In this document: positions 8,163-23,872 of the stretch, in pieces | How the letters are laid out: every line of letters starts with the position of its first letter | Position numbering within the stretch: position 1 is the stretch's first letter | Assembly (NCBI GenBank): GCA_025360225.1 | Contig: JANYCN010000034.1 | Location: 1-34,062, forward strand | Direction of reading: 5' to 3' | Length of the DNA stretch: 34,062 nucleotides | DNA from: Actinomycetes bacterium | GTDB lineage: Bacteria; Actinomycetota; Thermoleophilia; Gaiellales; F1-60-MAGs149 | Program-made: the position numbers and the translations under genes | The notes under the pieces: model-generated | What the model was told of the DNA's origin: nothing | Databases searched by the model: none | The model's input: only the letters and a program-made list of their open reading frames with translations

Positions 8163-9310
8163 CCGCGCGCCGCGTCGCCGAGCAATGAGCGGGCGATCAC
8201 GAGGCGCTGAATCTGGCTCGTCCCCTCGTACAGCTCGGTGATCTTCGCATCGCGGTAGCAACGCTCGGCGGGAAACTCCGCCGAGTACCCGTAGCCGCCG
8301 AGGGTCTGTACGGCGACGTCGGCGGCGTCGACAGCGACGCGGCTCGCGACGAGCTTGGCCCGGGCACCAGCCTGTGCGTGGGGGAGTCCGCCGTCGCGGA
8401 GCGCCGCGGCGTGCAGCACCATCAGCCATGCTCCGTCAAGGCGGGCGGCGATCTCAGCAATCGGGAACTGCACGCCCTGGAAACGGGCGATCGGCCCGCC
8501 GAACGCCGACCGGTCCTGCGCGTAGCTGACGGCGATCTCCAGCGCCGCGCGGGCGATCCCGCAGGCCTGCGCGGCGATCGTGATCCGTCCGCCATCGAGC
8601 GTCGCGAGCGCGACCTTGAGCCCCTCGTTCTCCGTCCCGACGAGACCATCCGTCGGTACCGCAAACCCGTCGAGAACGATCTCGGCCGTGGAGGACGTGT
8701 GGAGACCGAGCTTCGGGATCTCCTTCCCGGAATCAAGGCCAACACCGCGCTCGGCGACGAACGCGGAGATCCCCCGCGCACCTGCGCCGCCCGTCCGAGC
8801 GAACACCACGAAGAGGTCGGCGAAACCTCCGTTGGTGATCCACGTCTTCGTGCCGTCAAGACGCCAGCCGCCTTGCGACCGTACGGCGCGAGCACGGATG
8901 CTCGCTGTGTCCGACCCGGCGTCTGGCTCGGTCAACGCGTACGCGCCGAGCAACGCGCCCGTCGCGAGACGCGGCAGAAACGCGGCCTGCTGCGTTGGCG
9001 TGCCGAAGCGAAGGAGCGGCGCGACGCAGAGCCCGGCATGGACGGCGACAGCAACCGAGACGCCGGCGTCGTGTCGGGCCAGTTCCTCGACGACGAGACA
9101 GAGGGAGGTGTAGTCGAGGCCCGAGCCGCCGTGCTCCTCGGGGACGATCACGCCGAGCAAGCCGATCTCGCCGAGGCGGCGGATCACGTCGAGCGGCACG
9201 TGGTGCTCGCGATCCCAGCTGGCGGCGTGGGGCGCGATCTCGCCCTCGGCGAAGGTACGAACGAGGTCTTGCACGTCACGCTGGGCGTCGGTCAGGAGCG
9301 CTGCCTCCAT
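8159..9310 (-). CDS. Acyl-CoA dehydrogenase
   Basis: A 383-residue acyl-CoA dehydrogenase of normal length, probably delivering electrons to ETF. Motifs in order: GLLGVIVPEEHGGSGLDY near the N-terminus, YALTEPDAGSDTAS in the flavin-binding middle domain, KTWITNGGFADLFVVFA, QTLGGYGYSAEFPAERCYRD and the C-terminal YEGTSQIQRLVIARSLLG. The catalytic base cannot be fixed by eye, though LYEGT gives the Glu used in short/medium-chain types. The start is ATG at 9310, sharing one base with the mutase stop (TGATG). It lies directly after an isobutyryl-CoA-mutase-like gene, which suggests it oxidises the rearranged acyl-CoA, such as butyryl- or a branched acyl-CoA. Confidence 0.9.
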   Translation of the reverse strand: MEAALLTDAQRDVQDLVRTFAEGEIAPHAASWDREHHVPLDVIRRLGEIGLLGVIVPEEHGGSGLDYTSLCLVVEELARHDAGVSVAVAVHAGLCVAPLLRFGTPTQQAAFLPRLATGALLGAYALTEPDAGSDTASIRARAVRSQGGWRLDGTKTWITNGGFADLFVVFARTGGAGARGISAFVAERGVGLDSGKEIPKLGLHTSSTAEIVLDGFAVPTDGLVGTENEGLKVALATLDGGRITIAAQACGIARAALEIAVSYAQDRSAFGGPIARFQGVQFPIAEIAARLDGAWLMVLHAAALRDGGLPHAQAGARAKLVASRVAVDAADVAVQTLGGYGYSAEFPAERCYRDAKITELYEGTSQIQRLVIARSLLGDAARG

Positions 9311-15932: not shown

Positions 15933-16756
15933 GCCGCGCGTACCCGCCGGGGCGCAGCTGCACCAACGACCTCGACCCGGTCGCGGCCCCCACCCTTCGC
16001 GCGGTACAGCGCCGCGTCCGCGGCGGCGAAGAGCGCTTCGGCACTGCGCCCGTTTCCAGGGCACTCTGCGACGCCGGCGCTGATCGTCGTGCCGACGGGG
16101 CGCCGTCCCTGTCCGATGGGCACGACGATCTCGCCTACCGCGGCGCGGATCCGCTCCGCGAGACCGGCTGCCTGGCGCGCCGAGCCGGGCACGAGGACGA
16201 CGAGCTCCTCACCGCCAAAGCGACACGCGACGTCAGAGTCGCGAACGAGCCCGGTGATCGTCGCACCTACGCGAGCGAGAAGGGCGTTGCCGGCGGCGTG
16301 CCCGTAGCGGTCATTGAACTCCTTGAACCGATCAAGGTCGAGCAGCACGAGCGAGCACGTTCCCCCGTACCGTCGAACCCTGCCGACCTCACGGGCGAGC
16401 GCGTCGGCGAAGTAGGCGTACGTGTGCAGACCGGTCAGGCGGTCAACGTCCACCTGCTCGGCGAGCCGGTCGGTGGCGTCGTCCCGGCGCGACGTGCGAT
16501 CGTAGATCGCCACCGCGCCGACGCCGAGCGCGACGCGAACGGGGCCGTCGATCGGCACGAGCCCCGCTCCGACGCAGGAAACGACGAGCCCGACAAGACC
16601 GCCGCCCGCTGCAGCGAAGCCGACGCCAGCCGCTGCAAGCGCCGGTGCGGCGACAGGCTGCCAGTGATCCGCGAGGCCGCTCAGCACCAGCAACAGGACG
16701 CCGCCAACGACCGAGACGAGCCGGAAGCGCCGTTGGCGGATCGAGAGGGCCGTCAC
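15926..16756 (-). CDS. Membrane-bound diguanylate cyclase (GGDEF)
   Basis: 276 residues. It makes cyclic di-GMP from two GTP. Two or three hydrophobic helices (about residues 13-85) are followed directly by a GGDEF domain (about 100-265) with no sensory domain between. Active-site GGEEL is at 181-185 and the metal/substrate segment DLDRFKEFND at 140-149. The inhibitory I-site RxxD is intact (Arg172, Asp175, five residues before GGEEL), so product inhibition is expected. The start is GTG. It is divergent from the flagellar operon across 141 bases that carry a sigma-28-type promoter. With an RsiG-like c-di-GMP reader about 4 kb away it is a natural candidate for setting the signal. Confidence 0.9.
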   Translation of the reverse strand: MTALSIRQRRFRLVSVVGGVLLLVLSGLADHWQPVAAPALAAAGVGFAAAGGGLVGLVVSCVGAGLVPIDGPVRVALGVGAVAIYDRTSRRDDATDRLAEQVDVDRLTGLHTYAYFADALAREVGRVRRYGGTCSLVLLDLDRFKEFNDRYGHAAGNALLARVGATITGLVRDSDVACRFGGEELVVLVPGSARQAAGLAERIRAAVGEIVVPIGQGRRPVGTTISAGVAECPGNGRSAEALFAAADAALYRAKGGGRDRVEVVGAAAPRRVRAAS

Positions 16757-16802
16757 CTAGAGCGTTGTATCAAGGCCGCCGGACGGCGCCGACCAGCCGG
16801 CG

Positions 16803-16831
16803 CTCAAGCTCGTTACGAGCGGTGCCGATAC
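16803..16831 (+). promoter_or_regulatory. Sigma-28/WhiG-type promoter P1 (flgF operon)
   Basis: CTCAAG (16803-16808), 15 bases, GCCGATAC (16824-16831). The -10 matches GCCGATAA in seven of eight bases. It lies 66 bases upstream of the flgF GTG and would drive flgF to csrA. Confidence 0.72.
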
Positions 16832-16897
16832 TGCTTTCAAACCGTACGCGTACCGCTCTGGCGAGCGTCGACGGGTACCGGATCCGGAGGCGCCCCC

Positions 16898-17629
16898 GTG
16901 GAACGAGGGCTCTACATCGCCGCATCAGGGATGCTTGCGGCAGAGATCCGACAGGACGTCATCGCGAACAACCTGGCGAACGCCACCAACCCCGGCTTCA
17001 AGGGCGACAAGCTCGTGCAGCAGGCGTTCGGCGACCTCCTTCTCTCGAACACGCAGACCGGCAATCTGATCGGTCCGCTCTCCGTCGGCACGCAGGTGAA
17101 GACGATCAGCGTCGACCTCTCGAACGGTGGGCCGCAGTTCGACGGACGTCCGCTCGACCTTGCGGTGACCGGCGATGGCTGGTTCGCTGTTGGCGCTTCC
17201 GGCGGCACCACCTACACCCGCAATGGAGCGTTCACGACGAACGCGTCGGGGCAGATCGTCACCGCCCAGGGAGACCCGGTGCTCGACGCGAAGGGGAAGC
17301 CGATCACGATCACCGGCACCGGGCAGGTCTCGATCGCACGAGACGGCACCGTCTCCGTCGGCGGTGCGGTGGCCGGCAAGATCGGGCTCGTCGCCCTCAC
17401 CCCGTCCTCCGTCACGCACCTCGGCATGAACCAGTACGCGGGAACGCCGACCGGGAAGCCCGCCTCCGGCTCGATCGCCCAGGGGGCGCTGGAGTCCTCG
17501 AACATCAACACCGTCACCGAGATGGTGTCGCTGATCCAGAACATGCGCGAGTTCGAGGCCGATCAGAAGGCGATGCGGGCCCTCGACGACACGATCGACA
17601 AGGCTGTCAACCAGGTCGGGAGGGTCTGA
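16898..17629 (+). CDS. flgF: Flagellar basal-body rod protein FlgF
   Basis: 243 residues of the FlgE/F/G rod-hook family, exported by the flagellar type III system to build the rod. The N-terminal IAASGMLAAEIRQDVIANNLAN is the family heptad motif, and the C-terminal VTEMVSLIQNMREFEADQKAM is the conserved coiled-coil end. The middle includes VTGDGWFAV and TYTRNGAFT. Called FlgF because a second, longer family member (FlgG) follows at once. GTG 16898 has GGAGG seven bases upstream; the open frame extends far upstream but over the non-coding promoter and the antisense cyclase gene. The two paralogues could in principle be swapped. Confidence 0.86.
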   Translation: MERGLYIAASGMLAAEIRQDVIANNLANATNPGFKGDKLVQQAFGDLLLSNTQTGNLIGPLSVGTQVKTISVDLSNGGPQFDGRPLDLAVTGDGWFAVGASGGTTYTRNGAFTTNASGQIVTAQGDPVLDAKGKPITITGTGQVSIARDGTVSVGGAVAGKIGLVALTPSSVTHLGMNQYAGTPTGKPASGSIAQGALESSNINTVTEMVSLIQNMREFEADQKAMRALDDTIDKAVNQVGRV

Positions 17630-18414
17630 TGTTGGACGCGCTCTACACGGCGGCAAGCGGCATGCTCGGGCAGCAGACGGCGCTCGACACGATCGCGAAC
17701 AACCTGTCGAACGTCAACACCGTCGGCTTCAAGTCAGGTCGTACGGCGTTCGAGGACCTCCTCTACAACCAGCTCATGCCGTCCGCGGGCGCGGCGCAGG
17801 GCAACCAGATGGGTCTCGGCTCAGCGGTGAGCGCGATCCAGGTGCAGATGGACCAGGGGAACCTGCAGGCGGCGTCGGGCCAGCTCGACATGGGGATCGA
17901 TGGTTCAGGGTTCTTCCGCGTTCAGAAGGCCGACGGCACGACGTTGTACTCCCGCGCCGGCAACTTCGACCGCGATGGCGCCGGGCAACTGGTGACCGCG
18001 CGCGGCGAGCTCGTCCTCGGCACGGACGGCAAGGCGATCGCCTTCCCGCCGGACGCGAACATGGCGACGCTGAACGTCGAGGCGAACGGTGCGATCCGTG
18101 TCGACTCGGCGACGAAGGGTGCGAAGTTCCTCGTCGGCACGATCTCCCTGGCGACGTTCCGCAACGCGGCGGGGCTCGTGCCGCTCGGCGGAAACGCGTA
18201 TGGCGAGAGCCCAAACTCCGGTCCGCCGGTGACCGGCGCGCCGACGACGCCCGGCTTCGGCACGCTCAAGCCGGGCACGTTGGAGATGTCGAACGTGAGC
18301 GCGGTGAACGAGATGGTCGGCATGATCACGACCCAGCGTGCGTTCGAGGCGGTCTCGAAGGTCGTCCAGGCGTCTGATGAGATGCTCGGCATCGCTGACG
18401 GGTTGCGCCGCTGA
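17629..18414 (+). CDS. flgG: Flagellar distal rod protein FlgG
   Basis: 261 residues. YTAASGMLGQQTALDTIANN at the start and MSNVSAVNEMVGMITTQRAFEAVSK near the end are the terminal domains that form the D0 coiled coil; IDGSGFFRV and TLYSRAGNF are in the core. The length matches FlgG (about 260). ATG shares one base with the flgF stop (TGATG). It assembles on the FlgF rod section outside the membrane, exported without a Sec signal. Confidence 0.9.
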   Translation: MLDALYTAASGMLGQQTALDTIANNLSNVNTVGFKSGRTAFEDLLYNQLMPSAGAAQGNQMGLGSAVSAIQVQMDQGNLQAASGQLDMGIDGSGFFRVQKADGTTLYSRAGNFDRDGAGQLVTARGELVLGTDGKAIAFPPDANMATLNVEANGAIRVDSATKGAKFLVGTISLATFRNAAGLVPLGGNAYGESPNSGPPVTGAPTTPGFGTLKPGTLEMSNVSAVNEMVGMITTQRAFEAVSKVVQASDEMLGIADGLRR

Positions 18415-19213: not shown

Positions 19214-20671
19214 GTGGCAGTCTCGACGTTCAACGGCCTAAACATCGCCCTGCGCGGGCTGCTCGCCCAGCAGCGGGCACTCGATGCGACGACGCATAAC
19301 ATCGCGAACGCCAACACCGTCGGCTACACGCGACAGGAAGCGGTCCTCGAGGCGGAGCAGCCGCTCTCGAACGTGTCGGTCTGGGGCATGCAGTTCCCTG
19401 GACAGATCGGTCAGGGCGTGACGGTTTCCTCCTACCGACGCATCCGCGACGTCTTCAACGACGCGCAGCTCCGCGACGCCTCCAGCCAGCAGTCGTCGCT
19501 TGACGTGCAGTACCGCGAGCTCCACGGGACGACGCTCGCGATGCCCGAGCCGTCCGACCGCGGCCTCCAGGCGCTGATGCAGAGGTTCTTCACGGCGTGG
19601 CATGACGTCGCGAACTCGCCGGAGTCGGTCGCCGCGCGTCAGGCACTCGCACAGTCCGCCCAGTCGTTGACGACGGCGATCTCAAGCGCCGCCTCCTCGA
19701 TGGCGCGATCGCGCACGAACGATGACAACGAGATCGACTCCGGCGTCACGAACGTGAACACGATCACCGCCCAGATCGCGACGCTGAACCAGCAGATCGG
19801 CGACACGGTTCTTGCCGGCGCGCAGCTCGACCCGACGACTGGCGCGGTCGTCAAGCCCGGACAGTCGCCGAACGACCTGCTCGACAAGCGCGACAAGCTG
19901 CTTGACGACCTCGCGACCCACATCAACATCACGAGCGTCACCTACGACGATCAGCAACGCGCGACGGTCGTCGTCGCAGGGCTCGCGGTCGTCGCACCCG
20001 GCACCGGCGCAACGCCGATCACGCGAAGCCAGATCGACACGGCATTCGCCTCGGGAGCACTGACCGCCGGCTCGCTGCACGGGCTCGAGACCGCGTGGTC
20101 GACGAAGCTCAACGAGGCGAACCCCACCTCGTACGCGTCACAGCTGAACACCCTCGCGCAGGCGTTGCACGACACCGTCAACGCCCAGCACGCCCTTGGC
20201 GTCGACCTCGCGGGAACGGCCGGCTCGCTGTTCTTCGACATGACCTCACCAACCGGGCCGCCCGGTGCTGCGTCTCGCCTGACGGTCGCCTCCGGGATCC
20301 TCGCGAACCCATCGACGATCGCAGCAGCCGCCGCCGGCGAAGGTCCGGGATCATCCGGCAACGCGAACGCGATCATCGCCCTGCAGCAGGCCGTGACGAC
20401 GGGCTCGACGACGTTCAAGGACTTCTACAACGGCCTGCAGTCTGCGCTTGGTACGGCAACGGCCGGCGCCAACTCGAGCCTCGGCTCGCAGGCGATCGTC
20501 GTGAACGGCCTCACCGACCGTCGGACACAGTCGTCGGGCGTCTCGCTCGACGAGGAGATGTCGAACATGATCAAGTTCCAGCACGCCTACTCCGCCGCCG
20601 CGCGCGTCCTCTCTGCGATGGATGACAACCTCTCGAAGCTGATCAACAGCACCGGCCGGGTCGGTCTCTGA
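19214..20671 (+). CDS. flgK: Flagellar hook-associated protein 1 FlgK
   Basis: 485 residues. The N-terminal FNGLNIALRGLLAQQRALDAT followed by THNIANANTVGYTRQ is the FlgK version of the rod/hook family motif. LDEEMSNMIKFQHAYSAAARVLSAMD at the C-terminus is diagnostic. Forms the first hook-filament junction ring. The start is GTG, three bases after flgN. Length is at the low end of the family, with a reduced middle domain. Confidence 0.93.
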   Translation: MAVSTFNGLNIALRGLLAQQRALDATTHNIANANTVGYTRQEAVLEAEQPLSNVSVWGMQFPGQIGQGVTVSSYRRIRDVFNDAQLRDASSQQSSLDVQYRELHGTTLAMPEPSDRGLQALMQRFFTAWHDVANSPESVAARQALAQSAQSLTTAISSAASSMARSRTNDDNEIDSGVTNVNTITAQIATLNQQIGDTVLAGAQLDPTTGAVVKPGQSPNDLLDKRDKLLDDLATHINITSVTYDDQQRATVVVAGLAVVAPGTGATPITRSQIDTAFASGALTAGSLHGLETAWSTKLNEANPTSYASQLNTLAQALHDTVNAQHALGVDLAGTAGSLFFDMTSPTGPPGAASRLTVASGILANPSTIAAAAAGEGPGSSGNANAIIALQQAVTTGSTTFKDFYNGLQSALGTATAGANSSLGSQAIVVNGLTDRRTQSSGVSLDEEMSNMIKFQHAYSAAARVLSAMDDNLSKLINSTGRVGL

Positions 20672-21567
20672 TGCGGGCAACCGGCTCCGAGCTCGCGTCG
20701 CACGTCCTCTACGACGTCCAACAGGCATACGAGCGCCTGTCGAACACGCAGCGCAAGCTCTCGACGGGCAAGCAGGTCAGTCAGGTCGAGGACGACCCGG
20801 TGGCCGCCGGACGGGCGATGTTCCTGCGCGGCGAGGTGTCGAACCTCAAGCAGTACCAGACGAACGTGGGGGAGGCGCTTGGCTGGTTGAACGCCTCGGA
20901 CTCCGCCATCAGCTCGGTGCAGGACGTCCTGAAGCGCGCGAAGACGTTGCTCGTGCAGGCGGCGAACGGTGCAGTCGACCAGAAGGGGCTGAACGCGATC
21001 GCTGCCGAGGTAACGAAGCTGATCGACGGTGCACGGGGGGACATGAACGCCTCGTTTGCGGGTCGTTACCTGTTCGGCGGCACGCAGACGCTTGCGCCAC
21101 CGTACCCGGGCGCCTCCCTCACCTACGCTGGCGACGGGAACCAGATGCAGCGCGTGATCGGCGACGCGCAGACGGTGCCGCTGAACATGCTCGGCTACCA
21201 GGCGTTCTCGGTGCCGAACACCGCCGGAGGGCAGAACGTGCTGCAGCTCCTCGACCAGATCCGCGTCGACCTGCAGGCAGGGAACCAGACCGCGATTCAG
21301 AACGCCGACTTGAAGGCCGCAGACGCGATGGTCGACCAGATCTCAGGTGCCCGCGCCGAGATCGGGTCACGCGTCAACCGGCTCGAGACGGAGGACTCCC
21401 GGCTCAAGGACCTGTCGCTCAACGTCGCGGGACTCCTGTCGAAGACCGAGGACGCCGACATGGCAAAGACGATGATCGAGTACTCCACCCAGCAGGCCAC
21501 CTACCAGTCCGCGTTGCAGTCCGGCGCCCGTGTCGTCCAGCCGTCACTGCTTGACTTCCTGCGCTAG
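20671..21567 (+). CDS. flgL: Flagellar hook-associated protein 3 FlgL
   Basis: 298 residues. The flagellin-like N-terminus includes LSTGKQVSQVEDDPVAAGRAM, the FlgL signature, and AGRYLFGGTQT and the C-terminal EDADMAKTMIEYSTQQATYQSALQ agree. Second junction ring between hook and filament. ATG overlaps the flgK stop (TGATG). Confidence 0.93.
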   Translation: MRATGSELASHVLYDVQQAYERLSNTQRKLSTGKQVSQVEDDPVAAGRAMFLRGEVSNLKQYQTNVGEALGWLNASDSAISSVQDVLKRAKTLLVQAANGAVDQKGLNAIAAEVTKLIDGARGDMNASFAGRYLFGGTQTLAPPYPGASLTYAGDGNQMQRVIGDAQTVPLNMLGYQAFSVPNTAGGQNVLQLLDQIRVDLQAGNQTAIQNADLKAADAMVDQISGARAEIGSRVNRLETEDSRLKDLSLNVAGLLSKTEDADMAKTMIEYSTQQATYQSALQSGARVVQPSLLDFLR

Positions 21568-21580
21568 CCCGAGGAGCACC

Positions 21581-22087
21581 ATGGCGTCCGTCACCATCGA
21601 GTCCACCCGCTTCGGCCCCGTCGAGATCGACGAGGCGATCATCCTTGACCTGCCGAGCGGCATGATCGGCTTCGCCGAACAACAGCGCTTCGCGATCCTC
21701 AAGCAGCGCGAGGACTCCGTCTTCATGTGGCTGCACTCGGTCGATGACCCGGCGCTGGCGTTCCCGATCGTGTTGCCCTGGGTGTTCTACTGGGACTACG
21801 AGGTCGACCTTGCGGACGCGGACATGGAGGCGATCGGCGTCTCCCGCGCCGATCAGATCTCGATCTACTGCGTCGTCAACGTCGGCGCGGACGTGCGCAA
21901 CGCCACCGTGAACCTGTTCTCGCCGGTGGTGATCAACAACGCCGAGCGGCGGGCGCGCCAGGTGATCAACACGATCGCCGGCTACTCGACCCGCGACCGC
22001 CTGTTCCGTGACGCGGACAGCCCGACGCCGGTCGCGATGCACGAGTCGGAAGCGCCGAACGTCACCGTCCTCTCCGCCAGCCGCTGA
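21581..22087 (+). CDS. fliW: Flagellar assembly factor FliW
   Basis: 168 residues. [21 protein letters not shown] and [10 protein letters not shown]-like [11 protein letters not shown] mark FliW, which binds flagellin or the CsrA protein and so links filament assembly to flagellin translation. ATG 21581 has GAGGAG seven bases upstream; the longer frame overlaps flgL. It is followed by csrA, the usual order. The C-terminal tail beyond about residue 145 is Ser/Pro-rich and looks disordered. Confidence 0.93.
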
Positions 22088-22139
22088 GCCGCGAACCGCC
22101 AGCTACGCTCCCAGTCATCCACGAGCCAGGGAGGGCCTC

Positions 22140-22367
22140 GTGCTCGTACTTACCCGAAAGGTCGGCGAGACGTTTCTCGTCGGCGACGACATCACCGTCA
22201 CCGTGATCGACATCGTCGGTGGGAACAAGGTGCGCATCGGCATCAACGCGCCGTCGAGCGTCCCTGTCTACCGCGAGGAGATCTGGCACGCGATCCAGGA
22301 GGAGAACCGTGCCGCCGCTGCAGCCGGGACGGCCGACCTCGACGCCCTCGAGGCGGACGGTCGCTGA
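22140..22367 (+). CDS. csrA: Translational regulator CsrA
   Basis: 75 residues. [40 protein letters not shown] is split here as [15 protein letters not shown] and [12 protein letters not shown], the three CsrA signatures. It is an RNA-binding dimer that blocks ribosome access at GGA-containing hairpins. GTG 22140 has GGGAGGG just upstream. The Ala/Asp-rich C-terminal tail resembles the extended CsrA of FliW-containing bacteria, where the extension is needed for FliW binding. Its likely target is the fliC leader, which begins about 50 bases downstream. Confidence 0.94.
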
Positions 22368-22382
22368 CCCTGCACCCGGTCG

Positions 22383-22411
22383 CTCAAGTGTCACCGATCG
22401 TACGCCGATAA
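22383..22411 (+). promoter_or_regulatory. Sigma-28/WhiG-type promoter P2 (fliC)
   Basis: CTCAAG (22383-22388), 15 bases, GCCGATAA (22404-22411), a full match to the sigma-28 -10. It begins 15 bases after the csrA stop and would give a fliC leader of roughly 125 bases. Confidence 0.85.
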
Positions 22412-22459
22412 GCACGATGCATACCGCTTTCAAGCGATAGGCATAGGAGAACCGGAGGA

Positions 22460-22521
22460 GCTGGCGCTCTCCGTTGACGCGACCGGCTTCTGGCGAGGCG
22501 GGTCGTCGAGGAGGCGCCAGC
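22460..22521 (+). promoter_or_regulatory. Long-range stem in the fliC leader
   Basis: GCTGGCGC (22460-22467) pairs perfectly with GCGCCAGC (22514-22521), enclosing 46 bases with a GGA at 22510-22512. Its right arm shares 22520-22521 with the next hairpin, so the two folds compete at their junction. Confidence 0.4.
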
Positions 22522-22539
22522 ATCCCCAGGAGAGGATGC
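22520..22539 (+). promoter_or_regulatory. Putative CsrA-binding hairpin over the fliC ribosome-binding site
   Basis: GCATCC (22520-22525) and GGATGC (22534-22539) form a 6-bp stem with loop CCAGGAGA. The loop exposes AGGA, the preferred CsrA target, and the second GGA (22534-22536) with the Shine-Dalgarno AGGAGAGGA lies within or beside the stem, seven bases from the fliC GTG (22544). Bound CsrA would block initiation. Further GGA motifs lie upstream at 22446, 22454, 22457 and 22510. Confidence 0.6.
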
Positions 22540-22543
22540 AACG

Positions 22544-23359
22544 GTGGCGCTTCGGATCAACACGAACATCGGGTCGTTAACGGCGCACCGCATGCTCGAG
22601 CGGACGCAGAGCGAGCTCTCGGGCTCGATCGAGAAGCTCTCGAGCGGCCTGCGGATCAACCACGCCTCCGACGATGCGGCGGGACTCGCCGTGTCCGAGA
22701 AGCTGCGGGTCGGCATCCTCGGCCTGCAGCAGGCGGCGCGCAACACCCAGGACGGGATCTCGCTCGTCCAGACCGCGGAGGGTGCGCTGAACGAGGTGCA
22801 CTCGATCGTGCAGCGCGTGCGCGAGCTCGCCGTCCAGTACGCGAACGGCACCCTGTCGGCGAACGATCGCTCGGCGATCGCCACGGAGGTCGGCCAGCTC
22901 TCCGCTGAGGTCGGTCGGATCGCCGGCTCGACGAGCTTCAACGGCATCGACCTGCTCTCTGCCAGCACCGTTCTGACGTTCCAGGTCGGTGGCGTCGCAG
23001 GCGAGACGATCACGATGTCGACCGTCGGCATGTACGCAGGTTCGCCTCCGGTGATCGACCCGGCGATCTTCAACCTCGCCTCGACGACCTTCGACGTCGG
23101 CCTCGTCGACGCGGCGATCGCTTCCGTCGCTGACGCTCGCTCGGGGCTCGGCGCGGTGCAGAACCGCCTCGAGCACACGATCGCCAACCTCAACGTCTAC
23201 CAGGAGAACCTGCAGGCGTCCGAGTCGCGGATCCGCGACGTCGACGTCGCGCAGGAGATGGCGAACCTCACCCGCCTGCAGATCCTCTCCCAGTCCGGCG
23301 TCGCGATGCTTGCTCAGGCGAACCAGGCACCGCAGAGCGTGATGCAGCTGCTGAAGTAG
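22544..23359 (+). CDS. fliC: Flagellin
   Basis: 271 residues, a compact flagellin made almost only of the conserved D0/D1 ends. N-terminal ALRINTNIGSLTAHRML and EKLSSGLRINHASDDAAGLA, and RVRELAVQYANGT in D1, are textbook. C-terminal NRLEHTIANLNVYQENLQAS and LSQSGVAMLAQANQAPQSVMQLL complete the terminal coiled coil. The variable domain (about residues 145-195) is only some 50 residues. GTG start with SD seven bases upstream, inside a putative CsrA hairpin. It is transcribed alone or with the next gene from P2. A sugar-nucleotide gene block downstream shares the promoter type, so the filament may be glycosylated. Confidence 0.95.
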   Translation: MALRINTNIGSLTAHRMLERTQSELSGSIEKLSSGLRINHASDDAAGLAVSEKLRVGILGLQQAARNTQDGISLVQTAEGALNEVHSIVQRVRELAVQYANGTLSANDRSAIATEVGQLSAEVGRIAGSTSFNGIDLLSASTVLTFQVGGVAGETITMSTVGMYAGSPPVIDPAIFNLASTTFDVGLVDAAIASVADARSGLGAVQNRLEHTIANLNVYQENLQASESRIRDVDVAQEMANLTRLQILSQSGVAMLAQANQAPQSVMQLLK

Positions 23360-23365
23360 CAGATC

Positions 23366-23815
23366 GTGCCCTCCGCGCCACAAGGTGTTCAGGTCGATGG
23401 CGAATCCGCCGATCCCTTGAGCGTGGCGATGCCAACGCGAGCGTGTCGTACCTGCAGCGAGCGGTTCATCCCGCTGCGCTTCGACCAGGCCCACTGTCCG
23501 CCGTGCGACGCCGCGCGCCGTGACGTCGATCTGATCGACGCCTGTCTCCGGAGCTCGCCCGGTCAGAACGTCGACTGGGTCGCCCTCGCGACCGGAGTAC
23601 CGATCGAGCGGGTGCTCGAGCTAGCGGCCGAAGGCCGTCTCGCCGCCGCACCGATCGGCGCCGACGTACCGCGCTCGTGCCGTTGTGAGCCTAGCTCGCC
23701 CGGTCGCTGCGCCTACTGCACGCTGCAGCTGCGTGGCCGCCTTCGCGACGCCGCGTTCGACGCTGCGAAGGCCGCGTCAACACCGGTGCGCGGCATGCGC
23801 ATGCGCGGCGAGTGA
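23366..23815 (+). CDS. YvyF-like flagellar zinc-finger protein
   Basis: 149 residues from GTG 23366, or 128 from ATG 23429; neither has a good ribosome-binding site. The N-terminal zinc ribbon (CRTC, CPPC) leads into a helix-turn-helix-like segment VDWVALATGVPIERVLELAAEGRL, then a second Cys group (CRC, CAYC). This order matches the Firmicutes YvyF/TIGR03826 flagellar operon proteins, in which VEATGVPEDLIVKFIRKGRL occupies the same place. The role of that family is poorly known, possibly late flagellar regulation. It begins seven bases after fliC and probably shares the P2 transcript. Assignment is by architecture rather than strong identity. Confidence 0.68.
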   Translation: MPSAPQGVQVDGESADPLSVAMPTRACRTCSERFIPLRFDQAHCPPCDAARRDVDLIDACLRSSPGQNVDWVALATGVPIERVLELAAEGRLAAAPIGADVPRSCRCEPSSPGRCAYCTLQLRGRLRDAAFDAAKAASTPVRGMRMRGE

Positions 23816-23843: not shown

Positions 23844-23872
23844 CTAAAGCAGGCGGCCCGGAACGCCGATCT
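23844..23872 (+). promoter_or_regulatory. Sigma-28/WhiG-type promoter P4 (chemotaxis operon)
   Basis: CTAAAG (23844-23849), 15 bases, GCCGATCT (23865-23872). The -35 contains TAAAG, the classical sigma-28 form, although the last two -10 bases differ. It lies 44 bases before the cheW GTG. Confidence 0.68.

What the first reader, a model, noticed from the sequence alone, without database searches (positions are those of the whole stretch)
22412..22546. fliC leader hairpin with GGA loop over the ribosome-binding site: a FliW-CsrA flagellin switch
A 6-bp hairpin (22520-22539) presents AGGA in its loop and covers the Shine-Dalgarno, seven bases from the GTG. Several more GGA motifs lie upstream, and fliW-csrA are the two preceding genes. 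This matches the hag control logic of Bacillus subtilis, here in an actinobacterium.
Basis: partly seen in the sequence, partly recalled or inferred. Interest (0 to 1): 0.7.

Follow-up and report, generated by a model that had tools for sequence, protein, structure and literature searches.

The report
Flagellin leader with CsrA-type control
The RNA in front of this actinobacterial flagellin gene holds the reported hairpin over its ribosome-binding site, and the bacterium's other flagellin genes and those of its relatives carry a clearer two-hairpin version of the same signal, so the known FliW-CsrA flagellin brake very probably works in these bacteria, although this one leader is an unusual and weaker example.

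Summary
The hairpin is where stated: GCATCC-CCAGGAGA-GGATGC, 22520-22539, GTG at 22544. Alone it is weak (p 0.036). In the full leader its pairs have a probability of only 0.004-0.05, because a long rod takes its 5' arm.

fliW and csrA are real, in the Bacillus order. Flagellin leaders of 13 FliW-positive genomes of the order have an upstream hairpin with GGA in its loop in 18 of 35 cases (1.3 expected) and an SD hairpin with an NNGGAN loop and at least 4 bp in 19 of 35. Named flagellin loci of many phyla have the upstream hairpin in 35 of 80 (2.0 expected): 34 of 65 FliW-positive, 0 of 14 FliW-negative genomes. The window's own leader lacks it. Two of three other own flagellins with readable leaders fold the SD hairpin at p 0.99.

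Verdict: a known kind of switch, here in actinobacteria; the reported leader is its atypical copy.

The parts
20671..21567 (+). flgL-type hook-filament junction gene (Flagellin_N/Flagellin_C)
   Evidence: Pfam PF00669 7.5e-21, PF00700 4.6e-08; follows flgK (19214-20671, PF22638)
21581..22087 (+). fliW, ATG start
   Evidence: PF02623 2.9e-33; phmmer 2.2e-23 to chain 5dmb_A, FliW
22140..22367 (+). csrA, GTG start, only csrA found in the genome; carries the C-terminal extension
   Evidence: PF02599 1.1e-22; single match in own genome; aligns to 5dmb_D over residues 2-70
22384..22411 (+). sigma-28-type promoter TCAAG-N15-GCCGATAA
   Evidence: same type of site in 13 of 35 flagellin upstream regions of the order, 0.07 expected
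22419..22543 (+). predicted fliC 5' leader, about 125 nt (5' end inferred)
   Evidence: inferred from the promoter; fold of 22412-22600 z -3.5
22446..22459 (+). upstream GGA cluster (GGA at 22446, 22454, 22457); the segment 22452-22461 competes for the 5' arm of the SD hairpin
22457..22524 (+). long rod hairpin (GCTGGCGC...GCGCCAGC and inner stems), the predicted ground state
22520..22539 (+). SD hairpin GCATCC[CCAGGAGA]GGATGC, candidate CsrA site overlapping the Shine-Dalgarno
   Evidence: p 0.036; in-context probability 0.004-0.05
22528..22535 (+). Shine-Dalgarno region AGGAGAGG
22544..23359 (+). fliC flagellin, GTG start
   Evidence: PF00669 1.5e-44, PF00700 1.3e-30

Best explanation
The locus is a FliW-CsrA-flagellin control unit. 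CsrA binds GGA sites in flagellin leaders, one of them over the Shine-Dalgarno, and blocks ribosomes. FliW takes CsrA off when flagellin is exported; when flagellin builds up it holds FliW, and CsrA represses again. In this genome at least two further flagellins carry the clear form of the target. The fliC behind csrA has its own sigma-28-type promoter and an atypical leader: its SD hairpin is predicted to form only when the rod formed with the upstream segment 22452-22461 is opened, so CsrA may have to hold upstream GGA sites for the SD hairpin to appear, or may bind the SD GGA outside this hairpin. Shown: genes, gene order, conserved hairpins in the other leaders, predicted competition of folds. 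Inferred: CsrA binding, FliW antagonism, repression of this fliC.
For: Gene order flgK-flgL-fliW-csrA-fliC. FliW and CsrA both match chains of the FliW-CsrA complex 5dmb. Upstream GGA-loop hairpin in 18 of 35 leaders of the order, 1.3 expected; no other triplet exceeds 6 of 35. 35 of 80 named flagellin loci, 2.0 expected, next triplet 6. FliW-positive 34 of 65, FliW-negative 0 of 14. SD hexaloop register: 19 of 35 leaders with at least 4 bp, at most 2 in registers not nested in the same stem; among strong SDs 17 of 24 against 2 of 55 control RBSs. Own paralogues C74:630 and C74:1 fold the SD hairpin at p 0.99.
Against: The window's fliC leader has no upstream hairpin that meets the test, and model R1, searched down to E 10, finds none in 22412-22546. 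Its SD hairpin is nearly absent from the predicted ensemble. 23 of 35 SD hairpins of the order, taken one by one, are not below p 0.05. Model R1 does not single out flagellin leaders in the own genome (best E 1.17). No binding or expression data.
Confidence: 0.62

Rival explanations
1. The genome's other flagellins are under FliW-CsrA control, but this csrA-adjacent fliC is not: its SD hairpin is a chance stem and the leader does something else, for instance stabilise the mRNA or insulate fliC from csrA read-through.
For: p 0.036 only for the hairpin; hairpin out-competed; model R1 misses the leader; csrA-adjacent flagellins of relatives with a gap of 18-31 nt have no upstream hairpin, 0 of 5 in the order and none in L055 and L057, against 18 of 30 of the rest of the order set.
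Against: Unlike those, this gene has its own promoter and a leader of about 125 nt; 5 AGGA against 0.7 expected by mononucleotide shuffle; G056, the other csrA-adjacent one with a long gap, has an SD hairpin TCCATC[AAGGAG]GATGGA.
Confidence: 0.25
2. The leader is a plain structure-based control (rod against SD hairpin) without CsrA, such as a thermosensor.
For: Two exclusive folds within about 5 kcal/mol; fold of 22412-22600 z -3.5.
Against: No conservation to support it; no Rfam family reaches its threshold in the region; csrA directly upstream and GGA-loop hairpins in sister flagellins.
Confidence: 0.08
3. Chance: a GC-rich leader with a purine-rich SD gives such stems often, and nothing binds.
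For: 3 of 13 control RBSs reach a score of 15 or more with free choice of loop, and 1 of 13 reaches the window's 16 (some of these controls are not real starts).
Against: Order-wide and phylum-wide excess of GGA loops over all other triplets; tie to FliW.
Confidence: 0.05

Closest known systems
Bacillus subtilis hag leader with FliW-CsrA (review PMC7652899, passages read)
   Same: Same gene order (recalled for B. subtilis), CsrA site over the SD plus an upstream site, FliW as antagonist; nearest FliW structure and one of the CsrA matches are those of the FliW-CsrA complex.
   Different: Window leader has no upstream GGA-loop hairpin in the usual sense and a long rod instead; several flagellins instead of one main Hag; GTG start.
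Campylobacter jejuni flaA leader SL1/SL2 (PMC4894983, passages read)
   Same: Two stem-loops with ANGGA loops, the second over the ribosome-binding site, supported there by compensatory changes: the pattern found here in flagellin C74:630 and in many relatives.
   Different: Another phylum; in the window's own fliC only the second stem is present and its loop is 8 nt (or AGGA with an inner C-G pair).
Clostridioides difficile fliC CBS1/CBS2 (PMC11898703, passages read)
   Same: Two predicted hairpins; only the SD site CBS2 was needed for control, which is the situation the window's leader would require.
   Different: Tested there by reporters, not here; another phylum.

Membership tests
FliW-CsrA flagellin switch | fliW gene with FliW family match | tested here: met
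   PF02623 2.9e-33; 5dmb_A
FliW-CsrA flagellin switch | CsrA with RNA-binding arginine and the C-terminal extension used by FliW | tested here: met
   Alignment with three Bacillota CsrA keeps the arginine in YREEIW/HRKEIY and the IQEEN helix; 5dmb_D aligned over query residues 2-70. The role of the arginine is recalled; that of the C-terminus is from PMC7652899.
FliW-CsrA flagellin switch | CsrA site (GGA in a hairpin loop) overlapping the SD of the flagellin gene | tested here: inconclusive
   Present as sequence in the window (p 0.036) but not in the predicted fold; clear in own C74 paralogues
Two-hairpin flagellin leader (SL1/SL2 type) | upstream hairpin with GGA in a short loop | tested here: not met
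   Window fliC: none. Own C74:630 and C37:801 have one. The window leader is therefore not filed under this type.
FliW-CsrA flagellin switch | flagellin binds FliW; FliW releases CsrA; CsrA binds the leader | not testable with these tools
   needs protein and RNA
FliW-CsrA flagellin switch | absence of CsrB/RsmZ-type antagonist sRNAs | not tested
   Rfam was run on 22000-22900 only

The most novel reading that the evidence does not exclude
These actinobacteria run a split flagellin brake: flagellins away from csrA carry the two-hairpin CsrA target, while the copy placed behind fliW-csrA has lost the upstream hairpin independently in several lineages. In this genome that copy has a promoter of its own and a leader in which an upstream GGA-rich segment holds the SD hairpin apart, so that CsrA binding upstream would itself build the SD hairpin and its second binding site.
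Probability: 0.13. Interest if true: 0.6.

Novelty: new member of a known kind. Interest (0 to 1): 0.4.

Why it matters
A 2015 survey suggested that Actinobacteria, among others, may use FliW against CsrA, on gene presence alone (PMC4682653, passages read). The leaders found here give that idea RNA targets in an actinobacterial order and across FliW-bearing phyla. They make it testable in cultured relatives such as Patulibacter or Solirubrobacter, and would mark FliW-CsrA-flagellin control as the common, perhaps older, job of CsrA (an idea already voiced in PMC4894983).

Tried and rejected
Rfam on 22000-22900: only a sub-threshold SrbA match, rejected. Model R1 of the upstream hairpin as a genome-wide finder: too little information, best own-genome E 1.17 and none of its 12 hits lies on a flagellin contig stretch (C74, C37, or C78 in the window), so it is not used as evidence of specificity. 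Covariation counted on A2 (84.9% of cells paired): not used as proof, because the 43 rows had been chosen for having a stem; the shuffle and triplet controls and the unselected register test carry the argument. The idea that CsrA on GGA 22457 specifically triggers the SD hairpin: holding 22456-22460 unpaired raises the hairpin from 0.006 to 0.99, but 25 of 96 five-base blocks raise it over 0.5, so this site is not special. The idea that csrA-adjacent flagellins are one lineage: rejected, 8 changes on the tree, as many as with shuffled labels. First control set of 13 RBSs contained wrong starts and one stretch of a flagellin leader; replaced by 55 strong-SD controls, which are themselves picked by a script, not by annotation. 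Rows dropped: of the 49 hairpins, six (five with an AGGGA or ATGGA loop in a shifted register, and L134) were left out of A2; L070's genome is not held; of 80 named leaders a few starts (L072, L088, L102) are doubtful and were kept as misses.

Full report
WHAT IS THERE. The window lies in a 3.24 Mb draft genome of 89 contigs. Pfam gives flgK, flgL, fliW, csrA, fliC, then cheW, cheB, cheR, cheA. The hairpin GCATCC[CCAGGAGA]GGATGC is at 22520-22539 as reported and the GTG is at 22544. Upstream, TCAAG-N15-GCCGATAA (22384-22411) is a sigma-28-type promoter (the consensus is recalled); sites of this kind precede 13 of 35 flagellins of the order, 0.07 expected by shuffling. The transcript would begin near 22419 (inferred), giving a leader of about 125 nt.

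IS THE HAIRPIN MORE THAN CHANCE. Alone, hardly: with the SD core kept and the rest shuffled, 3.6% of sequences do as well. In context it is not favoured. RNAfold places 22457-22520 in a long rod whose foot pairs with the 5' arm of the SD hairpin. Forcing the SD hairpin costs about 5 kcal/mol. Its probability stays at 0.004-0.05 for ten 5' ends tried from 22412 to 22452, and is 0.999 for the three tried from 22462 on. How far the SD itself is free changes with one base at the 5' end (22419 against 22420), so no firm on/off reading follows from the fold.

OTHER FLAGELLINS OF THE SAME GENOME. FliC has six matches: the gene itself, four others on C74 and C37, and flgL. Three of the four others have readable leaders. 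C74:630 has CGACCCGA[AGGGAC]TCGGGTCG followed by GAGATC[AAGGAG]GATCTC over the SD; C74:1 has TCAGGTC[AAGGAG]GATCTGA over the SD and no upstream hairpin that meets the test; C37:801 has CCCGAC[AGGAT]GTCGGG upstream and no good SD hairpin. The two C74 SD hairpins fold at p 0.99 in context, C37's at 0.00, the window's at 0.03.

RELATIVES. FliW occurs in 13 of 129 genomes of the order; all 12 besides the own one have flagellin matches. I took 35 leaders: four from the own genome and 31 from the 12 others, leaving out flgL-like and headless matches. Of these 35, 18 have an upstream hairpin (weighted stem score 13 or more, loop with GGA, -150 to -20) against 1.3 expected in dinucleotide shuffles. 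Any other triplet in place of GGA gives at most 6 of 35. For the SD, all 35 leaders were used without selection: with loop NNGGAN 70% of pair cells are standard pairs and 19 leaders have 4 or more pairs in a row; registers not nested in the same stem reach at most 2. Taken singly, only 12 of 35 SD hairpins are below p 0.05. Among strong SDs, 17 of 24 flagellins of the order and 13 of 62 named flagellins have such a stem, against 2 of 55 other genes. Paralogues are related, so these counts are not independent events, but the stems differ in sequence.

BEYOND THE ORDER. In 80 named flagellin loci the upstream hairpin occurs in 35, 2.0 expected, next triplet 6. It is seen in Actinomycetota (for instance Patulibacter, Solirubrobacter, Microbacterium, Mobiluncus), Bacillota, Chloroflexi, spirochaetes and others. 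FliW was sought in 79 of these 80 genomes: 34 of 65 FliW-positive and 0 of 14 FliW-negative have the hairpin, Fisher p 1.7e-4. The FliW-negative set is mostly Proteobacteria, myxobacterial groups and lactobacilli, so descent is a confounder. CsrA was sought in 49 of them and is present in 41.

POSITION EFFECT. Flagellins that follow csrA by 18-31 nt have no upstream hairpin: 0 of 5 in the order, and L055 and L057 likewise, against 18 of 30 of the rest of the order set. They are not one lineage. G056, with a gap near 117 nt, and the window, 176 nt, are the two csrA-adjacent genes of the order set with room for a leader; G056 has a good SD hairpin. The window's fliC is thus of the class in which the signal is weakest.

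MECHANISM. CsrA binds GGA sites, often in hairpin loops, and at the SD shuts out ribosomes; FliW takes CsrA off when flagellin leaves the cell. This is established for Bacillus, and in large part for Campylobacter and C. difficile (PMC7652899, PMC4894983, PMC11898703: passages read). The own FliW and CsrA match the partners in the solved complex. For the reported leader a CsrA contact at AGGAG 22528-22532 is plausible (inference). Whether the SD hairpin forms would depend on opening the rod, which holding 22456-22460 unpaired achieves in the model (0.006 to 0.99), as do 24 other blocks of 96 to over 0.5.

PRINT. Searches for CsrA with FliW or flagella and actinobacteria or Microbacterium (listings read) found no report on such leaders in Actinobacteria. 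PMC10746217 names CsrA and FliW only among the proteins searched for (passages), and PMC4682653 lists Actinobacteria among groups that may use FliW (passages). The library holds open-access papers only.

Noticed in passing
window 23845-23870 (+); L015:2682-2707: A second sigma-28-type site, TAAAG-N15-GCCGAT, stands before cheW in the window, and a like one at the same place in the same-family genome G015, suggesting a late-class chemotaxis operon.
   Followed up: no
window 16804-16829 (+): A perfect TCAAG-N15-GCCGAT inside a flagellar rod/hook gene frame (16645-18414), ahead of the rod-binding, flgN and flgK genes; could be an internal late promoter.
   Followed up: no
L021, L033, L034, L035, L036, L055, L057: Flagellin genes 18-31 nt behind csrA lack the upstream GGA hairpin that other flagellins of the order carry, and are not one lineage.
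   Followed up: partly
L015:1978-2760: G015, the only other FliW-positive genome of the same family, has no flagellin behind csrA; a small cysteine-rich protein gene like that at window 23366-23815 and then cheW follow.
   Followed up: partly
window 8884-8910 (+): Best match of hairpin model R1 in the window (17.7 bits, E 0.067), away from the flagellin leader; probably chance.
   Followed up: no
L030, L031 upstream of the flagellin start: Some leaders carry two upstream GGA hairpins (about -44/-50 and -68/-75) besides the SD one, so perhaps three CsrA sites.
   Followed up: no
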